Source: Elusimicrobium minutum Pei191 (lineage in GTDB: Bacteria; Elusimicrobiota; Elusimicrobia; Elusimicrobiales; Elusimicrobiaceae). From it: 64,000 nucleotides of DNA. A program made the translations under genes and the position numbers. The notes beneath the pieces were generated by a model. It ran no database searches. It saw only the letters and a list, made by a program, of their open reading frames with translations, and had not been told where the DNA came from. The stretch is taken from positions 496,001 to 560,000 of the forward strand of contig NC_010644.1 of the NCBI RefSeq assembly GCF_000020145.1. The letters are read 5' to 3'. Shown here in pieces: positions 5,277-20,753 of this stretch (position 1 is its first letter; every line of letters starts with the position of its first letter).

Positions 5277-8200
5277 ATGTTAAACACTATTAAAAAATTT
5301 ATCTCTTTATTATTGATTATTATTTTAAACATGCAAACGACTTTGGTTTACGGTCAAAGCCGTGGCGCGGATAATTACCGTAAATTAACACAAGCTCCTC
5401 CTTTAGAAGACTTTGTAATTAAAAGAGATGCAATTAGAAGCCAAATGGAAACCGACAACCGCTATAAACAAATGCTTGACACTTATGCAAGGGATTTGCA
5501 CTTGGCGGAATTTATTTTAGATATTTCCATGAAAGAAATAGAAAAATCGGCCGAATCTGGCAATGAAGCCTTGTTTTGGGAACACGTAAACGCATTTAAC
5601 GGTATGTTAATATCTTATATTAATAAAGAAGGCAACGCCAATGTGCAGGCATTGGGCGCAATGACGCTCGTAAACCAGTTAAAAGAAAATCTTATTACGG
5701 CCGAAGACGCCGAGAGAGCTTACAAAAGATTTGAATATGTTTTAAAAACACAAAACAAATGTTCTGGCATATATTGTGAATTTCTTTCCGCCTCCGCAAT
5801 AGGGCTTTCCTACAGCAAAAACAAATATGTTGTTAATTTGGGGGAAGCTGTTAACAACACGCTTTCTGAAGTTCTTTACAGAGGGTCGCCTTTAGCGGTA
5901 AGAAAAGAAAGACTTTCTTTAATAAAAAATTTAGCCGGCAATGATTACGGCTCGGAAGAATCTAACGCTATTTTAACAAGAGGTCTAGTTATAGCTGTTT
6001 CTATTTTGGGTGGTATAAAAGAAGTTGAACAATTAACAGATAAAATAATGCACGGTAAAGAAGGGCTTTTTAATCAAAATAAAAACCACCGTTCCTATTT
6101 TTCACCAAATGCGCAAACTCAGATAGCGGCGTTGGACACCTTGTCGGAATTAGGTACACCGGTGCTCCCTTTGCTTAAAAAATACGCTTTTAATAAATAC
6201 AGTTTAGTTTCGCATATTCACGCTAATATCAATCTGGCTTACGTTAATGGGCTTTCGGAAACTGAAACAAGGATAAATAAAGACAATTTAAAAAGTTACT
6301 ATTGTAACTACGGCAGGTACCTTTCCGCGCAGGAAGATTTTGAATTAAAGAAAAAGCTTGCCTACGCTTACGGAAGGGGTTTAGCGCAGTCTTATCTTAC
6401 AAAAACAGGCAGTAATGAATGTCTTGTTATTGTACCGCTTGAACCTGATCCTCGTAAAGCAGCCAAAGATATTTCCGACGCTGTCGGCATGGAAATTGCT
6501 TTTATGGTAGCTTTTGCAGGTTTCGGTACGGCTTTTAACGTTGTAAAAAACGGCGCCAGAATATTAAGGCATATTAATAAAATTAAATATGTAGCTAACA
6601 AACGCAATATGAGTTTGGGTAAATTTTTCGCCTCAGGACAGCTTAGCACTTTACCTAAATTTAAAGCACCTTCCACAGTAACGGCAGGCGCGCGAAGCGC
6701 GCAAGCGGTGGCGCCTAAAGCCCAATTTGTTACTCCGCAAAAAAAAGTTAAAACCGATCTTTCTTCTTTGCATCCCGCTTCCGGGCAAGTGGTTAAACCG
6801 CAAAAAAATATTACTGTTTACGCGGAAAGAAGTTCCTCCGTTACGGAAAACGCGATAAAACCTTATGAACCGGGTTCCATATTAATGCAACAGAAAGTTA
6901 CGGTTAACCCGGTTTCTTTGCGTCCCGCTGTTCCTACAGCCCAATTTCAGCATGTTGCGCTAAAAAACCCTATTAACCGCAAATACCCTTCCGGCCTGCA
7001 CGATGAAGCCGGCATTATAAATAAATGGATGGATTATTACAGGAACGGTTATTTCCATCCGCGCAACCAAATAGAGGCTATTGAAGGCATGTCGCCTGCT
7101 AAAGTTAATAATTTGACGGAGTATTTTTTCCATATGTCAATGAAGGACGCCGAACAGGCAATTTTAAACCCTATCAAAACAAAGGGGAGGCTGCCTGATT
7201 TTATGTATGACAAAACTCTTATTCCCGGTACAAAGCGTCTTCCCGCGGCGTATTATAAGAAAAAGTTTAACGCCAATGTTGAAAAACTTGTAAATCTTGC
7301 CGACGGTGAAGGTACTCTTGTAACCAATAATGTGGAATTAGCTGAAATCATAACAAGCATGAAGGATTATACTTTTAAACAAGGCTTCAGCTATAAAAAT
7401 AATGAAGCGATGACGCACGGTCTTAAGAAAAATTGGACAAAAATGGTTGATGAAATTACAGAAAAAAGTTACAGAGCGAACCGTGAAAGAGTTAATGAAC
7501 TTTGGGTTAGAAAGATTGAAGCGGCCGACGGGCGTCAAGTTTCATTACGCGATTATTTTACTCAAAAAAGAATAAGTGTATATAAAGAAGTTGATAAAAC
7601 GCCAGAATTCTTTTTAAACAGTCCCAAATGGGTATCTTGGGAAAATGAAAGGCGCAACCTTGCGGCTAAAGAATATATAAAAAATACTATTACCCCTTCT
7701 AATCCTTTAGATAAAGTGCAGGATATGCTTGTTTTGGGCAATAGAAAAAACTATCTTTCTTTAGATGAATTTGGCGATATTATGATTACGCAATACCGCT
7801 CTATTCCTAAGTATGATAAAAGTTACCTTGCGTGGGAAGAAATGGTTAAAACTGATGCATTCCCCACAACAACAAGAATAAGGATTAACTGCCATGAAGG
7901 CCGCGCCTGCCAGGCTTCTTTCGGCGAAAGCGCAGGCGGCGCGGTTCCTAAAAATTACGACGGCACCCGCATGGTAAACCGTTTTGCTTTAGAATCCCAA
8001 AGCAATGTTAAAGCGATTGTTTTTGACGAGTCTTTCAAACCGCGCGTAGTTACTTTAAAAAATGTTCCTTATGTTAAAGATATTAAAGAGGTTGACATTG
8101 ACCTTGTAAGAGCAAGCAACATCGTTGCCGACGGGTTGGACGCCACGCGTGATTTGTTAACCGTACAAAAAGCTGAAATGGCTTTAAGAAAAGTGCCGGA

Positions 8201-8465
8201 TTTAAAGGCCACAATTTTACCGCAAAACCGTATTGTAGGCCAGCCTATTCCGGAGCATTTGGGTAAAGGCGCAAGCGGGTATTTATCTCTTTTTACAAGA
8301 GATTTTTACCCTGTAAAAACAGTGTACCGCGTACGTTTTAACGGTTTAAAACCTTATGTTAAAACAGAGTACTTTATACGCAAAGAAATTCCTTCTTTTG
8401 CCGGTATGGCGCACAGGGAAAGAATTACATTTTTAGACCAGGTTGCTGAAAGGGTTGTAAAATAA
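5277..8465 (+). CDS. Large exported protein of unknown function, helical N-terminal half
   Basis: 1062 residues. A signal peptide (MLNTIKKFISLLLIIILNM..., cleavage after VYGQ) is followed by an all-helical, HEAT/ARM-like region (about 40-390). A hydrophobic segment lies near residues 405-425 (MEIAFMVAFAGFGTAFNVV), then a low-complexity Ala/Pro/Val/Lys linker (460-560) with two related VxPxA-type stretches. A compact C-terminal half (575-1062) is rich in charged residues. I do not recognise any domain in it. The order (signal, helical repeats, single membrane segment, linker, C-terminal module) matches the 2741-residue protein at 29795, and the helical half resembles the 781-residue protein at 55265. 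I infer a lineage-specific secreted family with exchangeable C-termini. No ribosome site; see the -10 box at 5265. Confidence 0.6.
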   Translation: MLNTIKKFISLLLIIILNMQTTLVYGQSRGADNYRKLTQAPPLEDFVIKRDAIRSQMETDNRYKQMLDTYARDLHLAEFILDISMKEIEKSAESGNEALFWEHVNAFNGMLISYINKEGNANVQALGAMTLVNQLKENLITAEDAERAYKRFEYVLKTQNKCSGIYCEFLSASAIGLSYSKNKYVVNLGEAVNNTLSEVLYRGSPLAVRKERLSLIKNLAGNDYGSEESNAILTRGLVIAVSILGGIKEVEQLTDKIMHGKEGLFNQNKNHRSYFSPNAQTQIAALDTLSELGTPVLPLLKKYAFNKYSLVSHIHANINLAYVNGLSETETRINKDNLKSYYCNYGRYLSAQEDFELKKKLAYAYGRGLAQSYLTKTGSNECLVIVPLEPDPRKAAKDISDAVGMEIAFMVAFAGFGTAFNVVKNGARILRHINKIKYVANKRNMSLGKFFASGQLSTLPKFKAPSTVTAGARSAQAVAPKAQFVTPQKKVKTDLSSLHPASGQVVKPQKNITVYAERSSSVTENAIKPYEPGSILMQQKVTVNPVSLRPAVPTAQFQHVALKNPINRKYPSGLHDEAGIINKWMDYYRNGYFHPRNQIEAIEGMSPAKVNNLTEYFFHMSMKDAEQAILNPIKTKGRLPDFMYDKTLIPGTKRLPAAYYKKKFNANVEKLVNLADGEGTLVTNNVELAEIITSMKDYTFKQGFSYKNNEAMTHGLKKNWTKMVDEITEKSYRANRERVNELWVRKIEAADGRQVSLRDYFTQKRISVYKEVDKTPEFFLNSPKWVSWENERRNLAAKEYIKNTITPSNPLDKVQDMLVLGNRKNYLSLDEFGDIMITQYRSIPKYDKSYLAWEEMVKTDAFPTTTRIRINCHEGRACQASFGESAGGAVPKNYDGTRMVNRFALESQSNVKAIVFDESFKPRVVTLKNVPYVKDIKEVDIDLVRASNIVADGLDATRDLLTVQKAEMALRKVPDLKATILPQNRIVGQPIPEHLGKGASGYLSLFTRDFYPVKTVYRVRFNGLKPYVKTEYFIRKEIPSFAGMAHRERITFLDQVAERVVK

Positions 8466-8480
8466 TTCATTTTTACCATA

Positions 8481-8512
8481 AAAAACCCTCCGGCAATCAA
8501 GCGGGTTTTTTT
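8481..8512 (+). terminator. Intrinsic terminator after the 1062-aa protein gene
   Basis: AAAAACCC (8481-8488) pairs with GGGTTTTT (8503-8510), followed by T-rich sequence. Confidence 0.65.
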
Positions 8513-8523
8513 ATTATTTATTA

Positions 8524-8557
8524 ACAGAAAATCTCCTCCATAAAGCGGGGAGTTTTA
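8524..8557 (-). terminator. Candidate terminator of the Gp37/68-EFR1 pair
   Basis: Read on the minus strand, an imperfect stem with arms AAACTCC and GGAGATTT ends in a T-run just beyond the stop at 8559. Confidence 0.45.
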
Positions 8558-8558
8558 T

Positions 8559-9275
8559 TTATAAATTTATATTCGCTTTTTTTGCCTGTTTGTGCTGCAG
8601 TTTTTTATCTATTTTATAAAGTTTACCGTCTTTCAAAAACCTGGCGCCTGTTTGTTTAAAGATAAATGAAATACCGACTTTAGCGCATTGTTTTCTTATA
8701 TCAAGCACCCAGTTATAATCGCATATTCTGGTCTCTAACCCAGATTCACCGCCGGCTATAATCTGGCTTACCCACGTTCCTAAATGTTTTGAAAGGTTTA
8801 TTGGGCCTAAAAGAGGTTCACATATAATAATTCTTTCATTTTTTATCGGCGCGTTTTTGTATATAGGAATGCGATAATCGGCCATTTCTTGGTTTTCGGC
8901 AGTGCAGGCTATTGTAACATTGGAGTATCCTTCACCCCAATCCGGGGGGACAACGCTTTCAAGACGATGTATTCTTTTAGTAATAAAAAAGAAATTTAAA
9001 TCGCTTCTTATTTTCATCATTTCCCAAGCTTCTTTACGCCACTCGTCGGCTTCTTCAAGCAGGAAGTCTGAGGTAAAACAGGTAAAAACAGTTTGCCCGG
9101 AGGGTATTTTGTAACTGCGGCTGCGGTCGCGCCTTACGGGAAGGTTAAAGAGGGATGTTTTTTTTACTAAGGAAGCGTCCCTGCCGTGCATAGCGTCAAT
9201 ACGGTATACATAGCAATGTTTGCAGCCTTCGCTTATTTTACGGCAGCCGTGCCAGGGGTTCCAGGTTGTTTTCAT
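8559..9275 (-). CDS. DUF5131 / phage Gp37-Gp68 family protein
   Basis: 238 residues. The N-terminus TTWNPWHGCRKISEGCKHC carries the family signature (PF07505, phage Gp37/Gp68; radical-SAM-like Cys pattern C-x5-GC-x2-CY). A second family block is FFFITKRIHRLESVVPPDW, followed by ERIIICEPLLGPI and QIIAGGESG. Members are widespread in phages and bacterial genomes, and their substrate is not established. The three clustered cysteines would suit an Fe-S cluster. The start overlaps the stop of the upstream EFR1 gene by four bases, so the two are translationally coupled, suggesting that the ferredoxin-flavodoxin protein could supply electrons. That link is inference. Confidence 0.78.
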   Translation of the reverse strand: MKTTWNPWHGCRKISEGCKHCYVYRIDAMHGRDASLVKKTSLFNLPVRRDRSRSYKIPSGQTVFTCFTSDFLLEEADEWRKEAWEMMKIRSDLNFFFITKRIHRLESVVPPDWGEGYSNVTIACTAENQEMADYRIPIYKNAPIKNERIIICEPLLGPINLSKHLGTWVSQIIAGGESGLETRICDYNWVLDIRKQCAKVGISFIFKQTGARFLKDGKLYKIDKKLQHKQAKKANINL

Positions 9276-10045
9276 TTCTGTTTAGAAATTTCTGCCGCGC
9301 TTATAAGAGGGTGGCGGTATCTGTCTTGGTATTTTGAGAAAGCAAAACGTATTTGTATCACTTTTTCCGGACAATAATTTATGCAGGCCATGCATTGCAG
9401 GCATTTATGCCGCCATTCGGGGCCGTTATCATTAATTATAATGTTGTCCGCGGGGCATACGGCGGCGCATACGCCGCACTTTGTGCAGCCGGGGTTTACA
9501 AAAAATTTTTTATCTTTATTTGCTGTTTTGGCGTGTGAAAAATCAAAAACTTTTTTTGCCAGTTTATTTATTGTAAAAGGGCCGTTTGTAAAACCGTTTT
9601 TTACATTATCTATATAGGCGTCAATGTCTTTATCGGCTTTTTCTAGTTTTTTTGCCGATTTTTCGGCGCTTTTAACACTTATAAAAGGTATATAATTTGA
9701 AGGCATTTTGATGCCGACGGCATAATCTAAATTTTTGCCTTTTTCTTCAAGCAATTTTGCCGTTATGCCAAACACGGCCCCATAGCTACTTCCGGCGTTT
9801 GCGAGTACGGAAATGTAACGGGCGTTTGGCATTTGAAGTTTTTTAATAAATTCAAGCACCTTTACCGGAGGGCCCCAATAGTATACAGGGAACGAAAAAA
9901 CAACGCGTTCAGCATTACAAACAAAGCCGTCCGTTTTAAGCTCATGTGTTATAAATTTAACTTCGCTCAAAAGAGCTTTGGCTGTTTTAGCGGCCGCGTA
10001 AACACTGTTGCCTGTGCCTGAAAAACAATACACTATGGTTTTCAT
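9272..10045 (-). CDS. EFR1-type ferrodoxin: flavodoxin domain fused to 2[4Fe-4S]
   Basis: 257 residues. The N-terminal half is a flavodoxin-like FMN domain (IVYCFSGTGNSVYAAAKTA is the phosphate-binding loop; VFSFPVYYWGPPVKVLEF lines the flavin). The C-terminal third has two 4Fe-4S motifs, CTKCGVCAAVCP and CLQCMACINYCP, about residues 187-230. Such proteins shuttle electrons at low potential in the cytoplasm of anaerobes, often to radical or reductive enzymes encoded next door. It is the first gene of a two-gene minus-strand unit. The family assignment is firm; the electron donor and acceptor are not known. Confidence 0.85.
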   Translation of the reverse strand: MKTIVYCFSGTGNSVYAAAKTAKALLSEVKFITHELKTDGFVCNAERVVFSFPVYYWGPPVKVLEFIKKLQMPNARYISVLANAGSSYGAVFGITAKLLEEKGKNLDYAVGIKMPSNYIPFISVKSAEKSAKKLEKADKDIDAYIDNVKNGFTNGPFTINKLAKKVFDFSHAKTANKDKKFFVNPGCTKCGVCAAVCPADNIIINDNGPEWRHKCLQCMACINYCPEKVIQIRFAFSKYQDRYRHPLISAAEISKQK

Positions 10046-13723: not shown

Positions 13724-13752
13724 TTGAGGATATGTTCTTAAAAAGATATAAT
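13724..13752 (+). promoter_or_regulatory. Promoter of the [FeFe] hydrogenase gene, nearly leaderless
   Basis: TTGAGG (13724-13729), 17-bp spacer, TATAAT (13747-13752). The ATG at 13761 lies 8 bases after the -10 box, where transcription would start. Confidence 0.65.
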
Positions 13753-13760
13753 ATGACTGT

Positions 13761-15197
13761 ATGATAAAAAGAAAGATTAACAATTCGGAACACTTGAAAA
13801 GAGAAGTACTTGTAGAAATAGCAGCAATGTTTTTTCACGGTAACCTTGAAAAAGATATACACAAAATTCCTTATAACATAATACCAACAGGCTCGGAAGC
13901 GCAATTCAGATGCTGCGTTTATAAAGAACGCTCAATATTGAAATTCCGCGTTTTGGCCGCGTTGGGCTACTCCGTAAACGAAGTTGACGAAGCTGAACAT
14001 TTAAATAACTTTGTAGAGCAGAAAGATTTAAACAATAAAGAAGGTAAACTTTTAACCGTTTTAGATTCAGCCTGCAAAGCTTGTATGAGAAGTAATTATA
14101 TGGTGACGGAAGTCTGCCAGGGCTGCGTGGCCAGGCAGTGTATTTACGACTGTCCTTTTAACGCTATAAGCATGCAAAACGGACGTGCTTACATAGAGCC
14201 GGCAAAATGCAAAAACTGCGGTAAATGTAAGTCAGCCTGTCCTTACGGAGCTATTTTAAAATTAAACGTGCCTTGTGAGGAAGCTTGTCCCGTTAACGCT
14301 ATTAAAAAAGACCAAAAAGGCCGCGCTATAATTGACCACAGCATGTGTATAAGCTGCGGCAGATGTATGAAGGTTTGCCCTTTTGGCGCTATTATGGAGC
14401 GCAGCCAAATACTTAATGTTTTAAAAGCCTTTAACAGTGATAAAAAAGTTGTGGCAATGGTGGCCCCTGCTATAGCAGGCCAGTTTGACGCAAGTATGGG
14501 CGTGCTTACAACAGCTTTAAAAAAAATCGGGTTTGACTACGTCTATGAAGTCGCAAAAGGCGCGGAAGTTACCGCTTCTAACGAAGCCGCTGAGTTTAAA
14601 GAGCGCGTTATTGAAAAAAGGCAAAAGTTTATGACAAGCTCCTGCTGTTTCGCTTACACAAAGCTTGTGCAAAAGCATGTGCCGGAACTTCAGCAGTATA
14701 TTTCGCATACCAAAACGCCTATGCACTACACCGCTGAAATAGTAAGACGTGAACTGCCTGGCGCGGTTACGGTGTTTATAGGCCCTTGTTTATCAAAAAG
14801 AAAAGAAGGCCAGCAAAGCGGTTTGGTTGACTTTGTTCTTAATTTTGAAGAACTTTACGCCATTTTAACCGCCAAAGGTATAAATTTGCTTCAGTGCGAG
14901 GAAGAAAAGCTTGAAAACAGGCCCAGCGGCGCGGCAATGAGATTTCCTTTAGCGGGCGGCGTTACAAAGGCTGTAAGAGCCGCGTCTAAAGAAGATCTTG
15001 GCATTAAGGCGGAGCTTATTAACGGCTTAGACCAAAAAGTTATTTACAAACTTAAAGCTTACTGCAACGGCAACTGTCCGCATAACTTTTTAGAAGTTAT
15101 GACTTGTTTGGGCGGCTGCGTAGGCGGGCCCGACGCTATAAGAGATAAAATTAAAGCCGCTGTAGACGTTGAAAAATACTCGGCCCAAAACGATTAA
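13761..15197 (+). CDS. Monomeric [FeFe] hydrogenase (ferredoxin-domain, group B-like)
   Basis: 478 residues. The N-terminal ~95 residues contain FRCCVYKERSILKFRV, typical of the clostridial-type monomeric enzymes. Fe-S cysteines begin at residue 105 (CKACMRSNYMVTEVCQGC), followed by ferredoxin motifs CKNCGKCKSACP and CISCGRCMKVCP. The H-cluster domain shows L1 as TSSCCFAY (292-299), L2 as GPCLSKRKE (341-349) and L3 as CLGGCVGG (449-456). The enzyme reduces protons to H2 with reduced ferredoxin in the cytoplasm. L1 has Phe where most enzymes have Pro, and L2 has Gly where most have Met, so it belongs to a divergent branch or a sensory type. The maturases HydE/F/G are not in the window. Confidence 0.85.
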   Translation: MIKRKINNSEHLKREVLVEIAAMFFHGNLEKDIHKIPYNIIPTGSEAQFRCCVYKERSILKFRVLAALGYSVNEVDEAEHLNNFVEQKDLNNKEGKLLTVLDSACKACMRSNYMVTEVCQGCVARQCIYDCPFNAISMQNGRAYIEPAKCKNCGKCKSACPYGAILKLNVPCEEACPVNAIKKDQKGRAIIDHSMCISCGRCMKVCPFGAIMERSQILNVLKAFNSDKKVVAMVAPAIAGQFDASMGVLTTALKKIGFDYVYEVAKGAEVTASNEAAEFKERVIEKRQKFMTSSCCFAYTKLVQKHVPELQQYISHTKTPMHYTAEIVRRELPGAVTVFIGPCLSKRKEGQQSGLVDFVLNFEELYAILTAKGINLLQCEEEKLENRPSGAAMRFPLAGGVTKAVRAASKEDLGIKAELINGLDQKVIYKLKAYCNGNCPHNFLEVMTCLGGCVGGPDAIRDKIKAAVDVEKYSAQND

Positions 15198-15200
15198 AAT

Positions 15201-15234
15201 AAAAGCCCCGCCGTTTGGCGGGGCTTTTTATTTT
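15201..15234. terminator. Bidirectional terminator after the hydrogenase gene
   Basis: Stem GCCCCGCC/GGCGGGGC (15205-15212 with 15217-15224), flanked by A- and T-runs; also ends the minus-strand gene at 15243. Confidence 0.88.
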
Positions 15235-15242
15235 AAGATTTG

Positions 15243-16031
15243 TTAAAATCTTGCGTTAACAAGAGGGGAAACTATTAAAAATCCTTCCGGACTTACGTTT
15301 ATGGCGCCGATCTGCACGCCTTTTTCCATCCTGCCAGCGTAGTTAATAATACCAAGTTGTACGCCGTTTTTTAATAAATCTATTTTATTAATACAGCCTA
15401 TTTGCAGCCCGTTTATTTCATCTGCTCCGCTGTTAATAAGGCCCGCCTGCAAACCTTTTACGGCTTTATTGAAGTTTACCGCGCCTAATTGCAAGCCTTG
15501 TACTTTACCCCAGTTAAACGGAGCAGCCTGTAAACCGTAAATAGTGCATTCTTTGCCGCACATAGCCGCTAACGGCGATAATTGGAATCCTCTTCCGCCT
15601 TTTTCAGAGTAGGTAAGCGCTGATATCAAAATTCCGTTAAATTTTGTGTTAACGCTTATTAAACCGGAAACGCTTATTCCGTTTAAGTCCCTTGTAAGCG
15701 TAAACATGGGAGAAATCTGCACCCCGTTAAAATCGTTTCCAAACGCGTATACCGGTGCGGCATGAAGGCCGTAATGCTTTGTTTTTTCCAAAAGTTCAAA
15801 CGTGCCCGAACCGAGTAAACCTAAATCAAGTATATATATCGTGGTAGCGTCGGGCGGAACGGCCCAGCTGTTCCAGATTGAAAGCTTAAAGGGCGTGGTA
15901 TAGCCTTCCTGCTCAAATACGGGTTCGGCTTGAAACACCTGTTCCGTCTGCGCGAAAACGACTGGGGCTGACGCTGCCATCAATAAAAAAATAATAAGAA
16001 ATTTTAAATTTCGCATAATTTTATAATACAT
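15243..16031 (-). CDS. Exported LA_2272-like surface repeat protein
   Basis: 262 residues with a signal peptide (FLIIFLLMAASAPVVFAQ). From about residue 105 the protein is built of short repeats around the core GxQxGxxN / NGxQxxxI: FNGVQISPMF, LNGISVSGLI, YGLQAAPFN, VQGLQLGAVN, VKGLQAGLIN, INGLQIGCIN, KNGVQLGIIN, EKGVQIGAIN. This is the pattern of the LA_2272 surface-repeat family and probably folds as a beta-solenoid or barrel at the outer membrane. The Met at 16016 is an alternative start with a better-proportioned signal peptide. Function unknown. Confidence 0.65.
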   Translation of the reverse strand: MYYKIMRNLKFLIIFLLMAASAPVVFAQTEQVFQAEPVFEQEGYTTPFKLSIWNSWAVPPDATTIYILDLGLLGSGTFELLEKTKHYGLHAAPVYAFGNDFNGVQISPMFTLTRDLNGISVSGLISVNTKFNGILISALTYSEKGGRGFQLSPLAAMCGKECTIYGLQAAPFNWGKVQGLQLGAVNFNKAVKGLQAGLINSGADEINGLQIGCINKIDLLKNGVQLGIINYAGRMEKGVQIGAINVSPEGFLIVSPLVNARF

Positions 16032-18710: not shown

Positions 18711-18983
18711 ACATACCATATTATTTTAATATTTGAATGTAGTCAACATGTATATCAAAATACTATAATTGTTATTATGGTATAAAAATGTGTAATATTT
18801 ATGAATATTCTACATTGACAATCCTTAAAATGTATTTATATTATATTTATAACTTTTATTTTATACAAAATAATCATTTTTTTTCAAATAATCTGACCGT
18901 TTTTCAATGTTGTTTTATAGTTTATTGTACGCATAGATAATAATATTACATTTTTTAGGCATGTATCTTAAATGGAGGATAAA

Positions 18984-20753
18984 ATGAAGAAACGAGGATT
19001 CACCTTAATAGAAATAGCTGTAGTAGTTTTAGTAATAGCTATTTTAGCTGCGGCAGCTTTGCCGCAGTACAGAAAGTCGTTAGAACGCTCAAGAGCTGCC
19101 GAAGCTTTTGACATCCTTACAGAGATAAGGAATAAACAAGAAGCCAGGGATTTACTTGGCACGGGGACGGCCAAAGGCTATACTGTAAAGTTTAGCGATT
19201 TGGGGGAAGTAATAGCGGGTAAAAATTCCACAACAAACACATTAGACACAAGCCTGTTTACTTATACGCTTTCAAATAACCCATATCCGCAGGCATATGC
19301 CAAAAGGAAGGATATGGATTATTCGATAGTTCAGACAAAGGGGTATCAAGACAGTGCGTTATGTTGTTTGGGAAGGGATTGTAAAGTTGTAGACAGCGTT
19401 TTAAAAGGGTGTGAGAAGACAGCGTGCCTTACAACATGCGCAACGGGATATAAAAAAACGGGGTACTTTTTTTCGGAGGACGGGCCTTGCTGTGAAGCAA
19501 AAACGTCGTGTCCGACAACATGTCCTACGGGACAAAAGAGAAGTAGCGTGCAGTATACGGAAGACGGAGCGTGCTGCGTAGCCAAAACATCATGCCCGAC
19601 AACATGTCCTACAGGCCAGCAGAGGACAAGCGTACAATATAGTGAAGACGGAGCATGCTGCGTATCAAAAACGTCGTGTCCCGCAACATGTCCTGCAGGG
19701 CAAAAAAGAAGCAGCGTGCAGTATACGGAAGACGGAGCGTGCTGCGTAGCCAAAACATCATGCCCGACAACATGTCCCGCAGGTGAAGAAAGAACTTCTT
19801 CCCAGTATTATGAGGACGGAGCTTGTTGTAAAACAGCTACTGTATATACATGTTCGGGCGCAAGCAGCCAGGCTTGCGGCAACTGCGGAACGCAGACAAG
19901 AACATGTGATACTTCAACCGGCACATGGAGCGCGTGGAGTTCATGCTCGGGAGAAGGCGTTTGCAGCCCTGGTGCGACGCAAAGTTGTACAGGCGGCACG
20001 CAAACATGTTCAAGCACTTGCGCGTGGGGCAGTTGTGAAGTAGTATCAAAAAGTTGTTCGGGCGCGTCCACGCAAACTTGCGGTAAATGCGGCACGCAGA
20101 CAAGAACGTGTGATACCACAACAGGAGTATGGAGCGATTGGGGCAGTTGTTCGGGAGAAGGTGAATGTATACCCGGTGAAAAGAGAGATTACGGTTGCGG
20201 CTCTAAATCAGGAACAAACTGGGCTGTTTGCGGCTCAGACTGTAAAATGGGTGAGCCTGAAAACAAATGCTCAGCCTGTGAAGGAAAGAGCACCCAGTCT
20301 TGTACTTGCAACGGAATCCAAACACGTACATGCAATGAATCAACAGGAACATGGAGTGCGTGGGGAGCATGTGAAGGAGGACAAAACCCTTCCAATACGG
20401 CTTCCACAACAACAAAATGCTCGTTTAATAAAACTATCCGATACTCTTATGGTGATATGTACAGTAGCAGTACAGGGGTAGCTTATACTATTAATGGCAC
20501 TAAAACCAAAAGCTGGAATAAATATACTTGTCAGTGGCAGGAAAGTAAATGCAGCGGTATGATTTGGGTTTCTTTAGGCCAGCCTGCGGCCGTAGGCCAG
20601 GGCGCGCTTTGCCGAAGTACGCAGGCCTGTTCCGCTCCCGGAACGGGGTGGACTTACGTGGGCGGTTCGTGCAACGGAAGCAGTTTGTTAAGATGTTCGT
20701 CAAGCCCTAGTGATTCATGTTATTTGTATAATTGCCAAAATGTATCCCAATAA
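18984..20753 (+). CDS. Prepilin fused to Cys-rich 28-residue repeats and TSR-like domains
   Basis: About 589 residues from ATG 18984, chosen because GGAGG (about 18974-18978) sits at the right distance; the ATG at 18972 lies upstream of it. The N-terminus is MKKRG then FTLIEIAVVVLVIAILAA, a class III prepilin leader. A normal pilin head extends to about residue 140. Then come five 28-residue units (plus-strand 19413-19832), each with CP-x-TCP-x-G and YxEDGACC, that is four or five Cys per unit. Next are three thrombospondin-type-1-like segments with CGTQTRTCD...GTWSAWSSC (about 19850-20400), then a C-terminal Cys-containing domain. Disulfide-stiffened stalks on a pilin suggest a minor tip pilin or surface adhesin. 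The fusion is unusual; adhesin function is inferred. Confidence 0.82.
   Translation: MKKRGFTLIEIAVVVLVIAILAAAALPQYRKSLERSRAAEAFDILTEIRNKQEARDLLGTGTAKGYTVKFSDLGEVIAGKNSTTNTLDTSLFTYTLSNNPYPQAYAKRKDMDYSIVQTKGYQDSALCCLGRDCKVVDSVLKGCEKTACLTTCATGYKKTGYFFSEDGPCCEAKTSCPTTCPTGQKRSSVQYTEDGACCVAKTSCPTTCPTGQQRTSVQYSEDGACCVSKTSCPATCPAGQKRSSVQYTEDGACCVAKTSCPTTCPAGEERTSSQYYEDGACCKTATVYTCSGASSQACGNCGTQTRTCDTSTGTWSAWSSCSGEGVCSPGATQSCTGGTQTCSSTCAWGSCEVVSKSCSGASTQTCGKCGTQTRTCDTTTGVWSDWGSCSGEGECIPGEKRDYGCGSKSGTNWAVCGSDCKMGEPENKCSACEGKSTQSCTCNGIQTRTCNESTGTWSAWGACEGGQNPSNTASTTTKCSFNKTIRYSYGDMYSSSTGVAYTINGTKTKSWNKYTCQWQESKCSGMIWVSLGQPAAVGQGALCRSTQACSAPGTGWTYVGGSCNGSSLLRCSSSPSDSCYLYNCQNVSQ
19413..19832 (+). repeat. 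Five tandem 84-bp coding repeats (28 residues each)
   Basis: Units start at 19413, 19497, 19581, 19665 and 19749. The first is the most diverged; units starting at 19497 and 19665 are nearly identical at the DNA level, pointing to recent duplication of a two-unit block. Confidence 0.85.

What the first reader, a model, noticed from the sequence alone, without database searches (positions are those of the whole stretch)
13761..15197. [FeFe] hydrogenase with altered H-cluster motifs
L1 reads TSSCCFAY rather than TSCCP and L2 reads GPCLSK rather than MPCxxK. The cluster cysteines remain. The Met and Pro positions affect the H-cluster environment, so activity, bias or sensing may differ.
Basis: partly seen in the sequence, partly recalled or inferred. 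Interest (0 to 1): 0.5.

Follow-up and report, generated by a model that had tools for sequence, protein, structure and literature searches.

The report
Group B [FeFe] hydrogenase, Pro-less L1
This gene encodes an ordinary type (group B) of hydrogen-making iron enzyme; one of the two "altered" motifs is normal for that type, and the other is a single proline-to-phenylalanine swap at a position that many relatives have also changed.

Summary
The ORF 13761-15197 (+) is real and encodes a monomeric group B [FeFe] hydrogenase (TIGR04105, 570 bits, cut-off 450). The finding is half ordinary. L2 with GPC is the rule in group B: in 362 unique homologues the Met position is Gly 272, Ser 83, Ala 5, Val 1, Asp 1, Met 0, and CpIII has the same Phe/Gly pair (PMC12138974, passages). 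L1, read in register, is T-S-S-C-C-F against T-T-S-C-C-P: the one unusual change is Pro to Phe after the cubane-ligand Cys. That Pro is missing in 185 of 362 sequences (Ala 137, Ser 26, His 19, Phe 2, Tyr 1), all in one half of the family, with at least 8 changes on a tree; the two Phe do not form one clade. The sample is not random. Cluster ligands and proton-transfer residues are kept. In one relative a Pro-less enzyme is the only [FeFe] hydrogenase found and lies in an AdhE-Rex-hydrogenase-HydG run. I read it as a working ferredoxin-linked fermentative hydrogenase. Whether loss of Pro tunes the cluster is untested; sensing is not supported.

The parts
13761..15197 (+). Group B [FeFe] hydrogenase, 478 aa
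   Evidence: TIGR04105 569.9 bits, cut-off 450; Pfam Fe_hyd_lg_C 191 bits plus 4Fe-4S domains; AlphaFold2 model mean pLDDT 93.3; top 16 rows of VIA-align, all DdH, CbA5H or CpI chains, Z 37.1-39.8
14073..14153 (+). N-terminal cysteine stretch (C105, C108, C119, C122, C127, C131)
   Evidence: invariant in the 52 aligned group B proteins
14208..14378 (+). Ferredoxin-like [4Fe-4S] motifs (C150 to C160, C172, C176, C196 to C206)
   Evidence: Pfam Fer4 family matches; these cysteines invariant in the 52
14634..14657 (+). L1 loop T292-S-S-C295-C296-F297-A-Y299; C295 = proton-transfer Cys (CpI C299), C296 = cubane ligand (CpI C300), F297 = CpI P301
   Evidence: codons; alignment to CpI; tally; the roles of the CpI residues are established knowledge (recalled)
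14775..14801 (+). L2 loop F339-I-G341-P-C343-L-S345-K346-R347
   Evidence: F339/G341 correspond to CpI T351/M353, which the paper pairs with CpIII F266/G268; C343 and K346 invariant in 362 of 362
15093..15128 (+). L3 loop E445-V-M447-T-C449-L-G-G-C453-V-G-G456
   Evidence: C449 and C453 present in 360 of 362, gaps in the other 2
15201..15228 (.). Terminator-like hairpin of 12 pairs, read on both strands, just after the stop codon
   Evidence: 3 terminator-like rows found, two of them this hairpin, against 2.7 expected in shuffles; the count by itself is no evidence

Best explanation
A catalytic, cytoplasmic, monomeric group B [FeFe] hydrogenase that passes electrons from reduced ferredoxin through its N-terminal [4Fe-4S] clusters to an H-cluster and makes H2 during fermentation (or exchanges H2 with the genome's HydABC-like enzyme in a hydrogen cycle). 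L2 Gly is the group B norm. The Phe after the cubane-ligand Cys is one outcome at a site where the usual Pro has been lost repeatedly in one half of group B. Shown: family, fold, ligands, proton-path residues, maturases in the genome, spread of Pro loss. Inferred: that it is active, its electron donor and its direction.
For: Family score. C296, C343, C449, C453 align with CpI C300, C355, C499, C503, and C295, E275, E278, S315, R282 with C299, E279, E282, S319, R286 (that these CpI residues are the ligands and proton path is recalled). HydE 356 and HydG 511 bits and HydF 425 bits, all over cut-off, in the same genome. G302 (99% complete): one PF02906 match, a Pro-less group B enzyme (L1 MTTSCCSGYH), in the order AdhE-Rex-hydrogenase-HydG on one strand, with HydF elsewhere. 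G008: AdhE-Rex-hydrogenase, L1 MTTSCCHAYT. C295, C296, P342, C343, K346 invariant in 362 of 362. Group B enzymes of gut bacteria are reported active and to reoxidise ferredoxin (PMC12578642, abstract passage); HfsD, called group B in PMC8924675 (passage), is proposed to act by hydrogen cycling with HydA or HydAB (PMC11837493, PMC12288451, abstracts).
Against: No activity data. G282 (95% complete) has a Pro-less group B enzyme as its only PF02906 match but no HydG or HydF over cut-off; this is weak, because G347, G355 and G356, which carry Pro-bearing enzymes, also gave no HydG match. Maturase genes next door are rarer with Pro-less enzymes: same-strand HydG downstream in 1 of 119 (that of G302) against 5 of 132 Pro-bearing, HydE 0 against 5 (duplicates not removed). 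The window gene stands alone, without the AdhE-Rex or phosphatase-sensor neighbours seen elsewhere, and no Rex-like match lies upstream of it. A second, Pro-bearing group B gene in the genome (L031:7360-8808) could carry the main flux.
Confidence: 0.8

Rival explanations
1. The Pro-to-Phe change is a functional adaptation: losing Pro frees a backbone NH beside the cubane ligand and Phe adds an aromatic shield, shifting the [4Fe-4S]H potential, catalytic bias or gas sensitivity relative to CpIII-like enzymes.
For: The site directly follows the ligand Cys. Aromatics stand there in three places on the tree: Phe in the window, Phe in L105 whose sister L075 has Pro (support 95), Tyr in L347 (placed with support of only 17); one clade of the two Phe rows is rejected, p-AU 0.0024. 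Ser at the CpI S357 position (S345) is found in 15 of 49 Pro-less representatives against 0 of 50 Pro-bearing ones of the same half; a passage of PMC11926857 names S357 as a bias residue near the cubane.
Against: Ala (34 of 49 representatives) is the commonest replacement, with Ser 8, His 4, Phe 2, Tyr 1: that looks like relaxed constraint. The S345 link may be mere descent: 7 of 46 in the always-Pro half also have Ser. No measurement exists.
Confidence: 0.25
2. It is a sensory or regulatory hydrogenase rather than a catalytic one.
For: F/G or F/S near the bridging CO also occurs in TmHydS and TamHydS, which have low H2 evolution (PMC12138974 passage). SpoIIE-type phosphatase genes lie upstream of some Pro-less relatives (39 of 110 unique sequences with 1.2 kb upstream).
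Against: The proton-transfer Cys is kept; no PAS match in Pfam; the genome already has a sensory-type paralogue whose L1 is ISSSCHSV. The phosphatase neighbour is at least as common with Pro-bearing enzymes of the same L3 type (31 of 60). The window gene has no such neighbour.
Confidence: 0.07
3. It is a decaying, inactive paralogue that lost constraint at L1.
For: A second, Pro-bearing group B gene exists in the genome; Phe is rare (2 of 362); G282 shows no HydG or HydF over cut-off.
Against: 478-residue open frame, ligands and proton-path residues kept, high-confidence fold. In the window's family the other genomes listed with a match have one each, except G114 with two pieces; those read are Pro-less. 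In G302 a Pro-less enzyme is the sole PF02906 match.
Confidence: 0.06

Closest known systems
CpIII, group B [FeFe] hydrogenase of Clostridium pasteurianum (PMC12138974, passages)
   Same: Group B; Phe/Gly pair near the bridging CO (F339/G341 here, F266/G268 there); Ala at the CpI S232 position (A237 here, A162 there)
   Different: CpIII L1 is TSCCCP: an extra Cys where the window has S294, and Pro where it has F297. CpIII itself was not aligned here; the match rests on residue numbers in the paper and on my alignment to CpI
HfsD of Thermoanaerobacterium (called group B in PMC8924675, passage; PMC11837493 and PMC12288451, abstracts)
   Same: Fermentative enzyme proposed to work with HydA/HydAB in ethanol formation; the window genome also has a HydABC-like set, AdhE and group B enzymes
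   Different: The phosphatase-sensor set in this genome carries the other, Pro-bearing group B paralogue (L031:7360-8808), not the window gene. HfsD's sequence was not compared
Pro-less group B relatives in the window's family and phylum (G008, G017, G302 and others)
   Same: 46-60% identity in the ten rows aligned; same kind of L2; Pro absent
   Different: His, Ala or Ser instead of Phe; some lie beside AdhE, Rex or HydG
Group B gut hydrogenases of Bacteroides and Firmicutes (PMC12578642, passages)
   Same: Group B, reported to reoxidise ferredoxin
   Different: Their L1 letters are not in the main text (TSCC: 0 occurrences). In the tree the clade holding the labelled Bacteroidota rows has Pro in 27 of 28

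Membership tests
Group B [FeFe] hydrogenase (TIGR04105) | Score over the curated cut-off | tested here: met
   569.9 bits, cut-off 450
Group B [FeFe] hydrogenase (TIGR04105) | H-cluster cysteines in L1, L2, L3 | tested here: met
   C296, C343, C449, C453 aligned with CpI; kept across the family
Group B [FeFe] hydrogenase (TIGR04105) | Phe, and Gly or Ser, at the positions of CpI T351 and M353 | tested here: met
   F339, G341; family counts F 355 of 362 and G or S 355 of 362
Group B [FeFe] hydrogenase (TIGR04105) | Pro after the two L1 cysteines | tested here: not met
   Phe here; but Pro is absent in 185 of the 362 members sampled, so it does not define the group
Group B [FeFe] hydrogenase (TIGR04105) | N-terminal cysteine-rich ferredoxin-like region | tested here: met
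   C105 to C131 and the 4Fe-4S motifs, invariant in the 52 aligned
Group B [FeFe] hydrogenase (TIGR04105) | Ferredoxin-dependent H2 evolution | not testable with these tools
   needs purified enzyme
Group A [FeFe] hydrogenase | Score over group A cut-offs; MPC or TPC in L2 | tested here: not met
   TIGR02512 153.9 bits against 405.95; GPC in L2
Group C/D sensory [FeFe] hydrogenase | Proton-transfer Cys replaced; PAS domain | tested here: not met
   C295 kept; no PAS among the 12 Pfam matches

The most novel reading that the evidence does not exclude
One half of the group B family has dispensed with the L1 proline and uses the residue after the cubane-ligand Cys as a tuning site; aromatic residues (Phe twice, Tyr once) are convergent settings that change the [4Fe-4S]H potential and so the bias of fermentative, often AdhE- or Rex-linked hydrogenases in several gut phyla.
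Probability: 0.2. Interest if true: 0.5.

Novelty: new variant of a known kind. Interest (0 to 1): 0.28.

Why it matters
L1 is written as TSCCPxW in passages of PMC5506873 and PMC11926857; a motif filter built on it would miss 185 of the 362 group B sequences sampled here (a sample that leans to the window's relatives). A natural series of Pro, Ala, Ser, His, Phe and Tyr at one second-sphere site, in enzymes that otherwise keep their ligands, is a ready set for testing how that site acts on the H-cluster. I did not find the Pro-less forms in print: TSCCA with FeFe and hydrogenase gave 0 papers, and a search on FeFe, L1 motif, H-cluster, proline and group B listed 5 papers, none on this by title and abstract start. 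TSCCS, TSCCH and TSCCF were not searched, and I did not read the clostridial motif catalogues that PMC5506873 cites, which could list such forms.

Tried and rejected
Insertion in L1: rejected by alignment. Unusual L2: rejected. Sensory enzyme: see rivals. Single origin of Pro loss: one clade of all 49 Pro-less representatives is rejected, p-AU 1.25e-92 (the group was named after the tree was seen, so the p is indicative; the same holds for the two Phe rows). A Rex-like site upstream: 20 matches in the window against 17.4 expected, none between 11870 and 21955, so none at the gene (consensus recalled). Promoter-like site 13724-13752: 7 found in the scanned stretch against 4.0 expected, and it ends 8 bases before the ATG, so I do not rely on it. 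Papers: the listings gave nothing on this gene; PMC11257099 (passages) treats Endomicrobiaceae hydrogenases and has no occurrence of 'group B' in its main text; PMC3787301 (passages) reports altered L1 letters in other, trimeric hydrogenases; (CpI, P301) gave 0 papers. The H-cluster pocket was not measured: no model file is readable by script.

Limits of the tally. The 362 sequences are not a random sample. 39 of 441 HMM hits were under 380 bits and dropped; 402 became 362 after removing identical ones. For the trees 145 representatives were taken at 72% identity among rows with the same residue at 297, with seven loci forced in; trees are quick searches.

Full report
What is there. The ORF at 13761-15197 on the + strand codes for 478 residues. 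It matches TIGR04105, monomeric [FeFe] hydrogenase of group B, with 570 bits against a cut-off of 450, and falls far below the group A cut-offs. The genome holding the window has 1,643,562 bases in one contig; from memory this is the size of Elusimicrobium minutum Pei191, which I did not verify.

The motifs. Aligned with CpI (numbering fits the variant names C299A, E279A, R286A, S319A, G302S and S357T), the window protein has C295 and C296 at C299 and C300, F297 at P301, F339 and G341 at T351 and M353, C343 at C355, S345 at S357, K346 at K358, C449 and C453 at C499 and C503, and E275, E278, S315, R282 at E279, E282, S319, R286. So the cluster ligands and the proton path, as known for CpI, are complete. 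L1 differs from TSCCP by Pro to Phe, and by Ser for Thr at 293. L2 with Gly in place of Met matches CpIII, whose F266/G268 pair is described in PMC12138974 (passages).

How common. I gathered 402 group B open frames, 362 unique. The Met position is Gly 272, Ser 83, Ala 5, Val 1, Asp 1 and never Met. The Pro position is Pro 177, Ala 137, Ser 26, His 19, Phe 2, Tyr 1. Both L1 cysteines are invariant. In the window's family the residue is Phe here, His in the g2 genomes read and Ala or Ser in the g6 genomes read. The sample leans towards the window's relatives and is not random.

History. Trees of 145 representatives without the L1 columns need at least 8 changes between Pro and not-Pro. One half (46 representatives, SH-aLRT 99) always has Pro; assigning all 362 sequences by nearest representative gives 0 Pro-less of 91 in that half and 185 of 271 in the other. 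The window, as the only Phe row there, lies in a clade of 46 representatives (97), 43 of them Pro-less, within a group of 10 (88); the six of these ten that the output labels are from its family or phylum. The other Phe, in L105, pairs with the Pro-bearing L075 (95), and one clade of the two Phe rows is rejected (p-AU 0.0024). Several inner branches are weak (9, 17, 37).

Is it functional? The genome has HydE, HydG and HydF; a HydABC-like set (HydA matches group A6, 807 bits, cut-off 765; the NuoF- and NuoE-like partners fall under their own cut-offs); a Pro-bearing group B paralogue beside a SpoIIE-like protein (50 bits, under cut-off) and a sensory-type hydrogenase with a weak PAS-kinase match; and AdhE and Rex in the same stretch. 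The best evidence that Pro-less enzymes work is G302, 99% complete: one PF02906 match, Pro-less, in a run AdhE-Rex-hydrogenase-HydG. HydE was not sought in G302. In G008 the run is AdhE-Rex-hydrogenase. Of 110 unique Pro-less sequences with at least 1.2 kb upstream, same-strand upstream neighbours were SpoIIE-type phosphatase 39, AdhE 13, sensory-type hydrogenase 11, Rex 6; of 60 Pro-bearing ones that also lack Gly at 446 in L3: 31, 0, 9, 2; of 67 with Gly there, all Pro-bearing: 16, 1, 5, 0 (the upstream reach of many loci is only about 1.5 kb, so AdhE behind Rex may be undercounted).

Against it. Same-strand HydG downstream is seen with 1 of 119 Pro-less and 5 of 132 Pro-bearing places, HydE with 0 and 5 (duplicates not removed). 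HydG passed its cut-off in 36 of 41 genomes searched; among the five misses is G282, 95% complete, whose only PF02906 match is Pro-less and which also lacks HydF over cut-off (7 of 8 genomes had it). Three other misses (G347, G355, G356) carry Pro-bearing enzymes and gave no HydG match at all, so absence in this search says little.

Structure. AlphaFold2 with 52 aligned sequences gives mean pLDDT 93.3, pTM 0.90. The top 16 VIA-align rows are Desulfovibrio, CbA5H and CpI chains at Z 37.1-39.8 and rmsd 2.2-2.6. Cofactors are not modelled and the pocket was not measured.

Mechanism. Most likely a ferredoxin-linked fermentative hydrogenase, as reported for group B enzymes of gut bacteria (PMC12578642, passages); a hydrogen cycle with HydABC, as proposed for HfsD and HydA/HydAB in Thermoanaerobacterium (abstracts), is possible here but inferred. 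Loss of Pro after the ligand Cys could free a backbone NH near the cubane and move its potential; that is a guess from general iron-sulfur chemistry. The spread of Ala, Ser and His suggests relaxed constraint at least as much as tuning.

Verdict. An ordinary group B hydrogenase with a rare residue at a site that is variable in its half of the family.

Noticed in passing
L031:9984-11663 (-), same genome: Sensory-type hydrogenase (559 aa) whose L1 reads ISSSCHSV: the proton-transfer Cys seems replaced by Ser and the Pro by His; a SpoIIE-like gene and a Pro-bearing group B gene follow it, and AdhE and Rex genes lie upstream.
   Followed up: partly
window 18972-20753 (+); L216:5811-7736 and 8144-9745 (+): Prepilin-like proteins (GFTLIE start) that continue into long cysteine-rich repeats; three seen in the stretches of the genome that I read.
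   Followed up: no
window 15243-16031 (-): 262-residue protein, secreted-looking by eye, with repeats of the type NGVQLGIIN / GLQAGLIN and no Pfam match at E 0.001.
   Followed up: no
G282 (L292), a 95% complete genome of the phylum: A Pro-less group B hydrogenase is its only PF02906 match, with AdhE just upstream, yet no HydG or HydF passes the cut-off.
   Followed up: partly
L347 and L105: Tyr (L347) and Phe (L105) at the L1 Pro position, outside the window's own group in the tree.
   Followed up: partly
window 9272-10045 (-): Flavodoxin-like N-terminus (by eye) before ferredoxin-type 4Fe-4S motifs, next to a DUF5131 protein at 8559-9275.
   Followed up: no
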